Source: Lacticaseibacillus absianus (lineage in GTDB: Bacteria > Bacillota > Bacilli > Lactobacillales > Lactobacillaceae). Taken from it: a stretch of 64,000 bases of DNA. Shown here one piece after another: positions 31,345 to 42,531 of this stretch; position 1 is the first letter of the stretch; each line of letters starts with the position of its first letter. The notes below the pieces were generated by a model. That model was not told the DNA's origin, did no database searches, and saw only the letters and a list, made by a program, of their open reading frames with translations. The stretch lies in NCBI RefSeq assembly GCF_013407595.1, contig NZ_JABEKX010000006.1, positions 1 through 64,000 on the forward strand, given 5' to 3'. The position numbers and the translations under genes are program-made.

Positions 31345-32826
31345 TCATTCAGTTTCGGTGTCTTTGAGCAAAATGTTTCCGCTGGTGGTCGTGACCTTCA
31401 GCTGGCCTTCACCGGTCCCCGGGCGATCCAGGGCAACGGACTTGGCCTTGCCGGTCACATCGATGCCGCTCATGCGGCTCTTGACCCCACCGAAGCGCGT
31501 GCGTGCCTCACCGGTGACCGCCACGGTGGCCGGCAAGGCGACCTTGACGTTCCCGTTGACAGAGCTTGCCGTCAGCTGCTTGAAGTCGCTCGGTAAGGTC
31601 GTGCGGATCGTGCCGTTGACGGTCTGCAACGCCAAGGTCTTCGCATCGTTTTCGACCTTGATGTCGCCGTTGACGGTTTCAAGGACGAGGTCGTGGACCG
31701 CGCCATTGGTGACCTTGATCGAGCCGTTGACGTTTTCGGTCTCCAGCATCACTGCGGTCAGATCATTGAACGCCAGCTCACCGTTCGTGCTCTTGACGTA
31801 CAGATCCTTGCCGTTCAGCCCGTTAAGGGTCAAGCCCCCGTTGAGCAGGCGGACGGTAACATGATCGTAGTCGCGCTTCGGCAGGTGGATCGTCAGATCG
31901 GCTTGCACCCGGCGGTTCGGGACCTGGAAGACGAAGTGATCGTCATTGACATCGATGCGGCTACGGTCAAGGAAAGCTTGCAGCGGTGTGTCTGCGGCCA
32001 TCTTGCCGAACAGCTTGATGTTGGCATCGACCTGGATCCCGGCCTGCGCCCAAGTATCGATCGTGATGTCACCATTGGCGACCTTCAGATCTAGGATCGT
32101 CGCTTGACTGTCCGGAAAATCAAAGGTGTGGCTGAAGCGCTCCATTGCCAGCCCCGGTACCCGAACCGTGACATCCTTCCAGTCCACGTTGTCGAGCACG
32201 TTGCCCATGGTCTTCTTCAGGAGCGACCCGATCTGGACCGTGGCGTCATTGACGGTCTTGCCGATATCGTTCAGCGCGTCTTTGGCTTGGTCCTGCCAGT
32301 CGTCCGGCAAGACCTTATCGGTGAAGTGCTTCTTGTTCAGCAGGTGCTTCTCGCGGTTGAGGTCCGCGATCTGCGCCTTGATCGCCGCTTGCTGTTCCTT
32401 CAACTCGCTGAGTTGCTGGGTCAGCTCGAGGTTCTCCTGCTTCAACTGGCCACGCTCTTGATACTTCGCTTCGGTCAGCGTGTCGAGGTCTTCCATTGTG
32501 TCCAGCACGATGATCTGCTCGGCATTGGCCGCCAGTTTGGTGTTCACGTTCTTGATCTGGGCTTCCGTTGCGTCCAGTGTGCCGGCCAGTTCGGCCAGCT
32601 TCGTGTTCAACCCGGCGAGGGCCTCTTCGGCCACGTCTGGGCTCTTGTCGTCAGGTTCTTCAGGATCGGGAGTTTCGTTCGTCTGGTCAGCTGCGGCATC
32701 ATCGGGGGCAGCTGGCTTCGGTGCAGCTGCCTTGGCTTTGGCAAGGTTCTCAAGGAGCACCAGCGCTTCTTCGCTCGTGATCACCCCTTGCTTCACTAGA
32801 TCTAGGATCCGTTCACGTTCATTCAT
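31345..32826 (-). CDS. LiaX/YvlB-like DUF4097 protein
   Basis: Product of 493 residues. The N-terminus NERERILDLVKQGVITSEEALVLLENLA is the SHOCT-like helical domain of LiaX/YvlB proteins. An acidic low-complexity linker and a coiled coil (about residues 90-165) follow. The C-terminal half is a DUF4097 beta-helix with repeating NG-D-motifs (VANGDITI, VKSTNGELAF, TENVNGSIKV, ETVNGDIKV, SSVNGNVKV). In Enterococcus LiaX senses cationic antimicrobials and controls the cell-envelope response. First gene of the operon. Confidence 0.88.
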   Translation of the reverse strand: MNERERILDLVKQGVITSEEALVLLENLAKAKAAAPKPAAPDDAAADQTNETPDPEEPDDKSPDVAEEALAGLNTKLAELAGTLDATEAQIKNVNTKLAANAEQIIVLDTMEDLDTLTEAKYQERGQLKQENLELTQQLSELKEQQAAIKAQIADLNREKHLLNKKHFTDKVLPDDWQDQAKDALNDIGKTVNDATVQIGSLLKKTMGNVLDNVDWKDVTVRVPGLAMERFSHTFDFPDSQATILDLKVANGDITIDTWAQAGIQVDANIKLFGKMAADTPLQAFLDRSRIDVNDDHFVFQVPNRRVQADLTIHLPKRDYDHVTVRLLNGGLTLNGLNGKDLYVKSTNGELAFNDLTAVMLETENVNGSIKVTNGAVHDLVLETVNGDIKVENDAKTLALQTVNGTIRTTLPSDFKQLTASSVNGNVKVALPATVAVTGEARTRFGGVKSRMSGIDVTGKAKSVALDRPGTGEGQLKVTTTSGNILLKDTETE

Positions 32827-32977
32827 GGTATTACCTCCACGTATTGACTGCCTCTGTAGTTATAGTATGCCAGCCCCTCACCATGAATGCATAGGTCCTA
32901 AGGTTGATTTTTGAGTCGGGCGCACGGACACGCCCCGGTCGCCAACGCCGCTGACCCCGAGCGCGTCGTCACCCCGT

Positions 32978-33203
32978 CAAAAATAGCCGCCATGGGTAAT
33001 GGCGGCTACGGAGAAAGGATTGGTCGACGAGTGGGTGGCTCGCCGGCGATTTTTACTTTGGAGGAGTAAAAATGAAAAAGTTGGGTATGGGTATGGAAAT
33101 GAGTGGGTGGCTCATTTCTATGCCTCTGATACTACCCGCCAAATATGACGAAACTGTGATGAAGGCGTGCAAATTCTGCCATCGCACGCGAACACAAAAA
33201 TAG
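32978..33203 (+). repeat. Copy 1 of a stem-loop array with small ORF
   Basis: Four consecutive hairpins are visible, each with a 7-nt loop. H1 is 32986-33006, stem GCCGCCA/TGGCGGC, loop TGGGTAA. H2 is 33028-33042, stem CGAG/CTCG, loop TGGGTGG. H3 is 33049-33073, stem ATTTTTACT/AGTAAAAAT, loop TTGGAGG holding the Shine-Dalgarno. H4 is 33097-33117, stem AAATGAG/CTCATTT, loop TGGGTGG. Copies 2 and 3 are at 35934 and 42326. The A-run before H1 makes it a terminator on the minus strand. Confidence 0.8.
33072..33203 (+). CDS. Small repeat-associated protein, 43 aa, unknown
   Basis: ORF beginning MKKLGMGMEMSGWLIS, ending with a basic tail (CKFCHRTRTQK). The start codon forms part of the 3' arm of the ribosome-binding-site hairpin. 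Two Gly-Met units come from a GGTATG hexamer repeat. The paralogue at 36088 is identical over MKKLGMG and MEMSGWLISM and shares a later (D/E)E-x-V motif, as does the third copy at 42415. Coding is supported by homology of three copies; it could also be a regulatory leader peptide. Confidence 0.6.
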   Translation: MKKLGMGMEMSGWLISMPLILPAKYDETVMKACKFCHRTRTQK

Positions 33204-33299
33204 TCCCGATTTTTGGAAAGATGAGTGTGAAATAACGATCAATCATGCTACTATCAAGGCGAGTGGCAAATCTATTTCTATATGAAAGGAAGTGCAGGC

Positions 33300-33695
33300 A
33301 TGTTCACCTGGTTCTCGCACCTCACGGGCCCCTGGCCTTGGCTCGTCGGTCTGATCGGCGTCGTGATCGGCTTAGCGGTCCTGTGGATCTGTATCACGAT
33401 GCTCCTGCTCCCCCTACTCGCACTGATCCAGCATCTGATCGCACCGGCAGAGAACTCGACCAGCATCAGTGATGACCAGTACCTCTTGGGCACGCTGACG
33501 CTGGCGGTCACCGCTGATCACACCGGTGAGGTCATGATCGCGGGGGGCGGGCGAGCCCGGCAGACCTACCCGGCCAAGCTGTGGACCGCCGATGGTCCTG
33601 CACTCAAGCTCGGCGAACAAGTCGTCGTGGTCGACGTGGATCACGGCATCGCGTATGTCGAACGCTTCAACGCGGCCACTGCACCACGCGCGTAA
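33300..33695 (+). CDS. NfeD-like membrane protein
   Basis: Product of 131 residues from ATG 33300 (AAAGGAAG ahead). One or two N-terminal hydrophobic segments (residues about 9-45) precede a beta-rich OB-fold-like C-terminal domain (GTLTLAVTADHTGEVMIAGGG...GEQVVVVDVDHGIAYVE). NfeD proteins are usually encoded next to flotillins, as here, and organise membrane microdomains. First gene of a three-gene operon. Confidence 0.82.
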   Translation: MFTWFSHLTGPWPWLVGLIGVVIGLAVLWICITMLLLPLLALIQHLIAPAENSTSISDDQYLLGTLTLAVTADHTGEVMIAGGGRARQTYPAKLWTADGPALKLGEQVVVVDVDHGIAYVERFNAATAPRA

Positions 33696-33739
33696 GGCAC
33701 CACCCGCACCGCCATTTTTCATTCAAGGAGGATTCACCT

Positions 33740-35263
33740 ATGGACTTCACCCCGTACATCCCATGGCTGATCGCCGTGGTCGTTTTGATCTTACTGTTCA
33801 TCTTCCTCGCTACCCACCGCAAGACCGCACTGCCTAACGAAGTGCTGATCATCTCGGGGGCTTTGATCTCCGGCAAGCACAGCTTCAAGGATGTCAACGG
33901 CAACCGGGTCAAGCTGATCACCAACGGTGGCTCATTCATCCTGCCGATCCTGCAACGCTGGGACGTGCTCAGCCTGAACACCCGCACAATCGAAGTCGCC
34001 ACCCCCGAGGTCTACACGCAACAAGGGGTCCCGATCATCGTCAACGGCACCGTCATCCTCAAGATCGGGTCCAGCCAAGAAGAGGTCGCGACTGCCGCCG
34101 AGCAGTTCCTGGGCAAGAACGACGAGCAGATCAACTCGGAAGCCACCGAGATCCTCGAAGGCCACTTGCGGGCGATCCTCGGCACGCTGACCGTCGAGGA
34201 CACCTACCAAAACCGCGATGCCTTCGCCGAGAAGGTCCAAGACGTCGCCTCCTCCGACCTGGCCAAGATGGGCCTGCAGATCATCAGCTTCACGATCAAG
34301 GACATCGCCGACAAGAACGGCTACCTCGATTCGTTGGGTAAAAAGCAGATCGCAGAAGTCAAAAAGAACGCTGCGATGGCCGAAGCCGCCGCGAACCGTG
34401 ATACCCGCATCCAGCAGGCGCAAGCCGACCAGGAAGCCAAGCAACAGGAGATCGAGCGCCAGACCCAAGTTGCCGACGCTCAGCGCGAACAGCAAGTGCG
34501 CATGGCCGACTTCAAGAAGCAACAAGAGATCGCCCAAGCGCAAGCTGACCAGGCGGCCATCGTCGAACAGATGAAGGCCAAGCAGGTGCAGAAGGAAAAA
34601 GATATCGAACTCGCCCAGCGTGACGCCGAACTGCAGGAGCAGCAGCTGAACGCGACCGTGCGCAAGCAAGCCGATGCGGACCTCTATAAGGCCCAGCGTG
34701 CGGCCGATGCGCAAAAAGCGGCGCAGATCGCCGCTGCGGAAGCTTCCGCCAAGCAAGTTGAGCTTGCCGCCGAAGCAGACGCCAAAAAGGTCGAACTCGC
34801 CGCGGAAGCCGAGGCCAACAAGGTCAAGCTCGCCGCCAGCGCCGAAGCTGAGCGCACCGAGAAGATCGGGCAGGCGCAAGCCGCCGCGACCTCCGCGACC
34901 GGGCAAGCCGAAGCCGACAAGATCAAAGCGATGGGGTTAGCCCAAGCCGAAGCGATCGCCAAGCAGGCCGAAGCGGCCAAGCAACTCGACGAATCCGGGC
35001 GCTACAAGATGACGATCGAAGCGATGCCGAAGATCATCGAGGCCGCGATGAGCCCTTACGCGAACGTCGACTCGATCAAGCTCTACGGGGATGGCGACCT
35101 GACTGGCCAGACCAACGGTAGCCTGGTCAAGCAGCTGGACATGCTCAATGAAGTCGCCGGCATCGACATTCGTGGCATGCTCAACGGTGCGCTGACTCAG
35201 CAAGCCGGCAGCCGGCCAGTCGTTGACGCCCTCAAGGACCACACTGACACGCCGAAGGACTGA
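33740..35263 (+). CDS. floT: Flotillin-family protein (FloT-like)
   Basis: Product of 507 residues from ATG 33740 behind AAGGAGG. N-terminal membrane hairpin/helix (IPWLIAVVVLILLFIFLA), SPFH/band-7 domain (about residues 30-200) and a long Ala/Glu/Gln coiled coil (about 200-460) with repeated AEA motifs, then a C-terminal domain (GDGDLTGQTNGSLVKQLDML). Flotillins scaffold lipid domains and influence secretion and envelope signalling. Works with the NfeD protein encoded 44 nt upstream. Confidence 0.93.
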   Translation: MDFTPYIPWLIAVVVLILLFIFLATHRKTALPNEVLIISGALISGKHSFKDVNGNRVKLITNGGSFILPILQRWDVLSLNTRTIEVATPEVYTQQGVPIIVNGTVILKIGSSQEEVATAAEQFLGKNDEQINSEATEILEGHLRAILGTLTVEDTYQNRDAFAEKVQDVASSDLAKMGLQIISFTIKDIADKNGYLDSLGKKQIAEVKKNAAMAEAAANRDTRIQQAQADQEAKQQEIERQTQVADAQREQQVRMADFKKQQEIAQAQADQAAIVEQMKAKQVQKEKDIELAQRDAELQEQQLNATVRKQADADLYKAQRAADAQKAAQIAAAEASAKQVELAAEADAKKVELAAEAEANKVKLAASAEAERTEKIGQAQAAATSATGQAEADKIKAMGLAQAEAIAKQAEAAKQLDESGRYKMTIEAMPKIIEAAMSPYANVDSIKLYGDGDLTGQTNGSLVKQLDMLNEVAGIDIRGMLNGALTQQAGSRPVVDALKDHTDTPKD

Positions 35264-35854: not shown

Positions 35855-35933
35855 GTCGTGGGTGAGCTAGCCATGCGCACCGAAAATACACAGCGACCCA
35901 CAAGACCCGGTGATCACGGTGAGGCTGAGTCAT

Positions 35934-36282
35934 CAAAAAAACCGCCACTCGTGAGTGACGGTCTCAAACTTGAGCTGGCCGGTCTCGATCGAGACTGGCC
36001 AGCTGACTTTTTCGTCCCGCCGCGATCTGGCACACGTGTGGGTGGCACGCATCCCCGCCTTGGGACCATTACTTTGGAGGAGTAAAAATGAAAAAGTTGG
36101 GTATGGGTATGGGTATGGAAATGAGTGGGTGGCTCATTTCTATGTGTTTAAATGTACCCGCAGATTGTGAAGAAAGTGTGACGAAAGCGGCGCAAGTGAT
36201 GAAGAAAACCTTAATGTCATTTAAATGCTCTTATTTGACGCGTCGAGTCACTTCAGTTGCACTTTGCGACGATCACGACTAA
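35934..36282 (+). repeat. Copy 2 of the stem-loop array with small ORF
   Basis: Shares with copies 1 and 3 the CATCAAAAAAA-hairpin start (35941-35962), CGTG/CACG hairpin with loop TGGGTGG (36035-36049), the TTACT-TTGGAGG-AGTAA ribosome-binding-site hairpin and, inside the ORF, AAATGAG/CTCATTT around TGGGTGG (36119-36139). It has an additional nested palindrome: AGCTGGCC (35973-35980) pairs with GGCCAGCT (35997-36004) around an inner self-complementary GTCTCGATCGAGAC. Confidence 0.75.
36088..36282 (+). CDS. Small repeat-associated protein, 64 aa, unknown
   Basis: Begins MKKLGMGMGMEMSGWLISM, with three Gly-Met units against two in the 33072 copy, a difference of one GGTATG hexamer. The middle part has PADCEESVTKAAQVMKK; the C-terminus contains two more Cys. 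One weakly hydrophobic stretch (SGWLISMCLNV). The ORF ends 22 nt before the FeS-type gene at 36305, so it could act as a leader for it. No known family. Confidence 0.6.
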   Translation: MKKLGMGMGMEMSGWLISMCLNVPADCEESVTKAAQVMKKTLMSFKCSYLTRRVTSVALCDDHD

Positions 36283-42216: not shown

Positions 42217-42325
42217 GCCTTTTTTTGCCAGGGCGTCGCCGGTGCTGACCCAGCAGCAAAGACGCCGCGTCTGCCCCGCCTAGCACAGGCCTACGATTGG
42301 CGATCCCGTGCCACCCGCACGGCAT

Positions 42326-42531
42326 CAAAAAAGCCGCTATGGGCAGTAGCGGCCTGAGGAGTAAGGGTTGGCCGAACGTCACCGTCCGGCGATTTTTACT
42401 TTGGAGGAGTAAAAATGAAAAAGTTGATATGGGGATCAAGAGAGTGGGCAACTCTTCTTGACTCTCTTATCATATCCATAAGATGTGAAGAAATTGTGAA
42501 CTTTTCGATAAAAATTTATGAACTACATTAG
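42326..42531 (+). repeat. Copy 3 of the stem-loop array with small ORF
   Basis: H1 is 42333-42353, stem GCCGCTA/TAGCGGC, loop TGGGCAG. H2 is 42371-42390, GCCG-ACG/CGT-CGGC, loop changed. H3 is 42392-42416, the same ATTTTTACT/AGTAAAAAT stem with loop TTGGAGG. H4 lies inside the ORF, AAGAG/CTCTT (42438-42456) around AGTGGGCAA. The untranslated part is nearly as in copy 1, while the ORF has diverged. On the minus strand H1 followed by TTTTTT can terminate the MFS gene mRNA. Confidence 0.75.
42415..42531 (+). CDS. Small repeat-associated protein, 38 aa, unknown
   Basis: Begins MKKLIWGSREWATLLDSL and contains RCEEIVNFS, which lines up with DCEESVTKA of copy 2 and KYDETVMKA of copy 1. The ribosome-binding site and first codons are almost identical to the other copies, but the Gly-Met run is gone. 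The last 4 nt overlap the 3' end of the convergent MFS gene, which would make that mRNA antisense to the whole element. Confidence 0.5.
   Translation: MKKLIWGSREWATLLDSLIISIRCEEIVNFSIKIYELH

What the first reader, a model, noticed from the sequence alone, without database searches (positions are those of the whole stretch)
32986..33117. Arrays of hairpins with the same 7-nt G-rich loop on changing but complementary stems
In copy 1 all four hairpins have 7-nt loops: TGGGTAA, TGGGTGG, TTGGAGG, TGGGTGG. The stems differ (GCCGCCA/TGGCGGC, CGAG/CTCG, ATTTTTACT/AGTAAAAAT, AAATGAG/CTCATTT). Copy 2 has CGTG/CACG around TGGGTGG and copy 3 GCCGCTA/TAGCGGC around TGGGCAG. Constant loop with compensatory stem changes is the mark of an RNA (or single-stranded DNA) hairpin recognised through its loop, for example by an RNA-binding protein that counts multiple sites.
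Basis: seen in the sequence. Interest (0 to 1): 0.8.

Follow-up and report, generated by a model that had tools for sequence, protein, structure and literature searches.

The report
Multicopy stress small RNA in lactobacilli
The hairpins belong to several copies of a gene for a small regulatory RNA, read from the opposite strand, that lactobacilli probably switch on together with a stress protease and use to block the start of protein making on other messages.

Summary
The hairpins are real and their stems covary strongly, but the evidence puts the RNA on the minus strand. There each copy looks like a compact small-RNA gene: an 11-bp direct-repeat box (roughly KTCAYA-N5-KTCAMA), a -10 hexamer, hairpins mostly with C-rich loops (CCACCC), a hairpin carrying CAUUUUUACUCCUCC (exact complement of an SD plus AUG), and a terminator. 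The window has three copies, the genome four. All 30 genus genomes searched have 1-6. A covariance model finds the family in 142 of 395 genomes of the order and 8 of 398 of the class, all 8 in that order. The promoter box was not in the model, yet 37 of 41 hand-picked hits outside the genus have it, and it precedes htrA in 29 of 30 genus genomes. One relative folds as nine hairpins with C-rich loops. Best reading: a two-component-controlled multicopy sRNA that pairs with ribosome-binding sites, working like streptococcal csRNAs or Listeria LhrC. No Rfam family matched. Expression, regulator and targets are not shown.

The parts
33144..33161 (-). copy 1: direct-repeat promoter box CATCACAGTTTCGTCATA
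   Evidence: position; box conserved
33129..33134 (-). copy 1: -10 hexamer TAGTAT
   Evidence: position; TA...T in the alignment
32979..33122 (-). copy 1: sRNA; start about 7 nt after the -10 (inferred), end in the T-run
   Evidence: model match 32978-33126, E 1.9e-39; fold
33096..33118 (-). copy 1: 5' hairpin GAAATGAG/CTCATTTC, loop CCACCCA
   Evidence: 4 of 11 pairs of this helix change on both sides
33049..33074 (-). copy 1: anti-RBS hairpin with CATTTTTACTCCTCC (33060-33074)
   Evidence: 6 of 7 pairs never vary in the 30 rows
33023..33047 (-). copy 1: middle hairpin, loop CCACCCA
   Evidence: 9 of 9 pairs change on both sides
32979..33008 (-). copy 1: intrinsic terminator, C-rich loop, T-run 32979-32983
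   Evidence: 9 of 9 pairs change on both sides
36166..36183 (-). copy 2: promoter box CGTCACACTTTCTTCACA
36151..36156 (-). copy 2: -10 hexamer TACATT
35934..36144 (-). copy 2: sRNA with an extra hairpin (35973-36004) and terminator at 35934-35961; hairpins with TGGGTGGC/GCCACCCA at 36118-36140 and 36033-36050; anti-RBS 36076-36090; ends inferred
   Evidence: model match 35933-36148, E 2.4e-17; positions
42484..42502 (-). copy 3: promoter box AGTTCACAATTTCTTCACA
42469..42474 (-). copy 3: -10 hexamer TATGAT
42326..42462 (-). copy 3: sRNA; 5' hairpin 42436-42461, anti-RBS hairpin 42392-42416, middle hairpin 42372-42389 (loop not C-rich), terminator hairpin 42333-42353; ends inferred
   Evidence: model match 42325-42467, E 3.6e-31; fold z -5.72; positions

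Best explanation
The window carries three related genes, on the minus strand, for a small regulatory RNA of about 140-210 nt. Shown by sequence comparison: most copies have a direct-repeat box 9-10 nt upstream of a -10 hexamer, covarying hairpins mostly with C-rich loops, an almost invariant anti-RBS hairpin and an intrinsic terminator; the same box stands before htrA. Inferred: the box is the site of an OmpR-type response regulator that senses envelope or secretion stress and switches on htrA and all sRNA copies together. Inferred: each RNA offers several short C-rich sites (CCACCC loops, the CUCCUCC loop, an unpaired ACUCC stretch, the terminator loop) that start pairing with G-rich Shine-Dalgarno regions; the anti-RBS hairpin then opens and covers SD plus AUG, so translation of the target is blocked. 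The stems drift because only their pairing matters, while the loops are kept.
For: Covariation: 23 of 36 pairs change on both sides, score 0.414 against at most 0.102 for slid partners. Promoter: box plus -10 in 76 of 90 copies, 0 of 90 on the other strand. Terminator: CCC in the loop of 43 of 61 distinct family terminators against 0 of 23 other terminators of the window. G-T exceeds A-C 33 to 10 in the middle hairpin and 13 to 4 in the terminator. Independent check: box found upstream of 37 of 41 model hits outside the genus though the model holds no promoter. Shared regulon: box above the 99th percentile of background before htrA in 29 of 30 genomes, -10 in 30 of 30. Anti-RBS core ACTCCTCC in 79 of 90 copies. 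Precedents csRNA and LhrC.
Against: No expression data were seen. Strand signs are not uniform: over all hairpins G-T and A-C are 78 to 69, and in the 5' stem they are 20 to 20 (summed). The plus strand also folds better than its shuffles. 14 of 90 copies fail the strict promoter pattern; 12 of these look like one-repeat departures by eye, L083 and L094 have none. 18 of 61 distinct terminator loops lack CCC. No other 22-nt stretch matching the RBS complement (up to 3 mismatches) is in the own genome, so targets are not obvious. The regulator is not identified.
Confidence: 0.72

Rival explanations
1. The same minus-strand RNA works mainly as a multivalent sponge: its repeated C-rich loops bind an RNA-binding protein or another RNA, and the number of hairpins sets the dose.
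For: Loops are kept while stems change. One relative folds as nine hairpins with CCCC or CCCCC in each loop.
Against: The most conserved part in the genus is not a generic loop but the anti-RBS stretch. No candidate protein was sought or found.
Confidence: 0.15
2. A plus-strand leader: the hairpin with SD and AUG controls translation of a small plus-strand ORF (RNA thermometer, riboswitch, or toxin-type hidden RBS).
For: GGAGG and ATG are correctly spaced on the plus strand and lie in a hairpin.
Against: The ORF from that ATG has 3-98 codons in 85 distinct copies, 37 of them under 15. Box plus -10 in 0 of 90 copies on that strand. The plus-strand fold does not keep hairpins 2 and 3.
Confidence: 0.04
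3. A mobile palindromic repeat (REP or MITE-like).
For: Several copies per genome with hairpins.
Against: Copies keep neighbours between species: of 90 loci scanned, 24 hold the Fe-S gene and 16 the MFS gene of the window, own loci included. Promoter and terminator signals are conserved.
Confidence: 0.03

Closest known systems
CiaR-dependent csRNAs of Streptococcus (PMC3091779, passages read)
   Same: Several copies per genome; OmpR-family direct repeat with N5 spacer about ten bases upstream of the -10; intergenic RNA ending in a terminator; sequence complementary to SD and AUG; htrA in the same regulon.
   Different: Box there is NTTAAG-N5-TTTAAG, here KTCAYA-N5-KTCAMA. The CiaR-like regulator of this genome has no close relative in 10 of 18 sRNA-positive genomes searched. 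Here up to four hairpins, in one relative nine, with C-rich loops.
LhrC family of Listeria (PMC4132741, passages read)
   Same: Multicopy; controlled by a two-component system (LisRK); several redundant C-rich sites in loop, linker and terminator loop; binds the SD region of its target.
   Different: No Rfam match at gathering score in the window or 40 loci; that LhrC is one of the Rfam families is recalled. Its LisR-responsive element lies upstream of -53, here the box lies at about -24 to -40.
CsrB/RsmZ-type RNAs
   Same: Many hairpins sharing one loop motif.
   Different: GGA-like loops would be on the plus strand only; the RsmZ model scores 20.7 bits there against a cut-off of 44.
The 307 putative sRNAs of L. 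casei BL23 (PMC8220740, section 7 and passages read)
   Same: Same genus; RNA-seq and Northern blots of many short transcripts, so some members may already have been detected.
   Different: No passage seen describes a multicopy family, shared promoter box or anti-RBS hairpin; the supplements could not be opened.

Membership tests
csRNA (CiaR regulon) | CiaR repeat NTTAAG-N5-TTTAAG before the -10 | tested here: not met
   Consensus of 49 aligned copies is TCA(C/T)A-N6-TCA(C/T/A)A
csRNA (CiaR regulon) | Regulator CiaR present | tested here: not met
   CiaR-like regulator (likeness judged by eye) has a relative of 48% identity or more in 8 of 18 sRNA-positive genomes among 38 searched
csRNA (CiaR regulon) | Stretch complementary to SD and AUG | tested here: met
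   CATTTTTACTCCTCC; ACTCCTCC in 79 of 90 copies
csRNA (CiaR regulon) | Several paralogous copies per genome | tested here: met
   1-6 DNA matches in each of 30 genus genomes; some genomes have only one
LhrC | Match to a curated RNA family model | tested here: not met
   Only tRNAs at gathering score in the window and 40 loci; presence of LhrC in the library is recalled
LhrC | Dependence on LisRK | not testable with these tools
   A LisR/ArlR-like regulator (name recalled) is in 17 of 18 sRNA-positive genomes, but also in most genomes without a hit
LhrC | Redundant C-rich sites in loops, linker and terminator loop | tested here: met
CsrB/RsmZ | GGA in hairpin loops of the transcribed strand | tested here: not met
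   Transcribed strand has C-rich loops; RsmZ model below cut-off and on plus
Small coding gene | Reading frame kept between homologues | tested here: not met
   3-98 codons in 85 copies

The most novel reading that the evidence does not exclude
An ancient Lactobacillales-wide stress regulon (htrA plus multicopy sRNAs) in which the sRNA evolves by adding and swapping hairpin cartridges that share one C-rich loop, up to nine on one RNA. Valency towards ribosome-binding sites, or towards an unknown C-rich-RNA-binding protein, would be the evolved trait, and streptococcal csRNAs and Listeria LhrC would be diverged branches of the same system.
Probability: 0.25. Interest if true: 0.8.

Novelty: new variant of a known kind. 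Interest (0 to 1): 0.62.

Why it matters
It would give probiotic lactobacilli and other families of their order a csRNA/LhrC-like layer of stress control that Rfam 15 does not hold, with a shared promoter box by which the regulator can be found. The changing number of hairpins makes the question why bacteria keep many redundant sRNA sites directly testable.

Tried and rejected
Considered and rejected: plus-strand leader or small ORF; mobile repeat; T-box remnant (GGGTGGC recalled a T-box; no Rfam match); CsrB/RsmZ. PhoP as regulator, suggested by a recalled Bacillus box, found no support: no box above 4 bits in the phoPR-pst region of the own genome (the PhoP/pst naming there is recalled). The CiaR-like regulator was rejected by distribution. 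A strand test over all hairpins was uninformative. A search with the 22-nt RBS complement found only window copies. In one search the upstream scan took wrong ORFs for two of ten regulators (L203, L204); one search then scanned the regions of three regulators whole and found only a 4.5-bit site, before the LisR/ArlR-like gene. WalR and PhoP were not tested by distribution. Of 70 promoter-pattern matches I examined 13 that were not classic copies: 2 htrA, 9 sRNA-like, 2 (L196, L200) with nothing evident.

Full report
What was reported. They are there. The minus-strand RNA folds into these four hairpins with z -8.86. The plus strand also folds better than its shuffles (z -5.69) but pairs hairpins 2 and 3 differently.

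Copies. A DNA search finds four copies in the own genome, three of them in this window. In the genus 30 of 30 genomes have 1-6 matches. An exact search of named genomes gave 25 stretches, 24 in Lacticaseibacillus and one in Enterococcus nangangensis; contigs of equal length in both sets (202184 bases) show that the window's genus is Lacticaseibacillus. Ninety distinct copy sequences were extracted.

Which strand. Read on the minus strand, most copies look like a complete gene: TCAnA-N6-TCAnA, 9-10 nt, TAnnnT, then a hairpin, a C-rich linker, an anti-RBS hairpin, a variable hairpin and a terminator with a T-run. In the 49 copies chosen for alignment these box and -10 positions are invariant. 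In all 90 copies a strict box plus -10 is met by 76 on this strand and 0 on the other; of the 14 misses 12 show by eye one departing repeat, and L083 and L094 have no box. G-T exceeds A-C in the middle hairpin (33 to 10) and the terminator (13 to 4); cells are not independent. Against this, the count over all hairpins is 78 to 69, and in the 5' stem it is 20 to 20 (summed). The three model matches in the window are all on the minus strand.

Structure. On 30 copies 93.2% of cells pair, 23 of 36 pairs change on both sides, and the covariation score is 0.414 against 0.203 shuffled and at most 0.102 slid. The rows are related, so the shuffles overstate significance, and the structure was drawn from these sequences, which favours it over slid versions; the gap is nevertheless large. 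All 9 pairs of the middle hairpin and all 9 of the terminator change on both sides, 4 of 11 in the 5' stem. The anti-RBS hairpin hardly varies here (6 of 7 pairs never), although across all loci its stem also changes in concert (5 C-G beside 33 T-A at the first pair outside the conserved ACT/AGT). CAUUUUUACUCCUCC is the exact complement of GGAGGAGUAAAAAUG.

Loops. Of 61 distinct family terminators found by script, 43 hold CCC in the loop, against 0 of 23 other terminators of the window. Not all loops are C-rich: copy 3 has a GUGA middle loop. In some copies the middle and the anti-RBS hairpin have changed places. Two genomes hold a longer version; in one, the 347-nt stretch that was folded gives nine hairpins in the centroid, each with CCCC or CCCCC in the loop, z -12.37.

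Spread. A covariance model of 150 positions that does not contain the promoter hits 127 of 301 Lactobacillaceae genomes in 20 of 40 genera, 142 of 395 genomes of the order in 37 of 80 genera, and 8 of 398 of the class, all 8 in the same order (how many of the 398 lie outside the order is not shown). E-values of the model are rough. As an independent test I looked for the box upstream of 41 hits outside the genus, picked by hand from the listed hits of 12 other Lactobacillaceae genera and 13 genera of other families: 19 of 21 and 18 of 20 have it at p 0.02 or better against shuffles. Of the four misses, L171 and L302 show a box by eye, missed because the script found no anchor; L174 and L291 do not.

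Regulon. The promoter pattern gave 70 matches in 28 of 30 genus genomes; the reversed control pattern gave 1. Most lie at known copies; of 13 others examined, 2 precede htrA, 9 look like further sRNA variants, 2 show nothing evident. Scoring 280 bases around the start of htrA in all 30 genomes gave a box above 9.2 bits, the 99th percentile of background, in 29 (the other 8.4), and a -10 at the right distance in 30. The own-genome gene encodes a trypsin-like plus PDZ protein whose best NCBIfam model is HtrA, below that model's cut-off. htrA with multicopy sRNAs is the make-up of the pneumococcal CiaRH regulon (PMC3091779, passages). LhrC depends on LisRK (PMC4132741, passages); LisRK control of htrA is recalled.

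Regulator. The CiaR-like regulator of this genome has no close relative in 10 of 18 sRNA-positive genomes among the 38 searched. A LisR/ArlR-like regulator (name recalled; no NCBIfam model over its cut-off) is in 17 of 18; the exception, G045, is 87% complete. It is also in most genomes without a hit, so this is compatible, not decisive. WalR (YycF by NCBIfam) lies about 6 kb before htrA and was not tested by distribution.

Function. Pairing to SD and AUG, started by C-rich loops, is inferred from sequence and from csRNA and LhrC precedent. No second 22-nt target was found in the own genome at up to 3 mismatches, so targets are probably recognised by shorter seeds.

Alternatives. The plus-strand ORF is not conserved. 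Copies sit at stable places. Rfam has no match except tRNAs for the window and 40 further loci at gathering score; a permissive scan of the element gave four low-scoring entries, all on plus, including RsmZ far below its cut-off.

Verdict. It is a widespread sRNA family that works like csRNA and LhrC, failed the membership tests that could be made for either, and is unusual for its modular multi-hairpin design.

Noticed in passing
L193:2300-1950 (-); L194:2444-2790 (+): A relative of about 350 nt with nine hairpins, each with CCCC or CCCCC in the loop, behind the same promoter box.
   Followed up: partly
L189, L190: A very short transcript-like unit (box, -10, terminator) without the anti-RBS hairpin, upstream of a gene that resembles queG (name recalled), in two genus genomes.
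   Followed up: no
   Followed up: no
L094:1396-1645: A sequence resembling the anti-RBS hairpin and a terminator lies between two tRNA-like 3' ends; neither ARAGORN nor Rfam calls a gene there.
   Followed up: partly
window 31345-35263: Copy 1 lies between a DUF4097 gene and an operon with a flotillin gene and a weak NfeD match (20.9 bits, cut-off 29.1), membrane-stress type neighbours.
   Followed up: no
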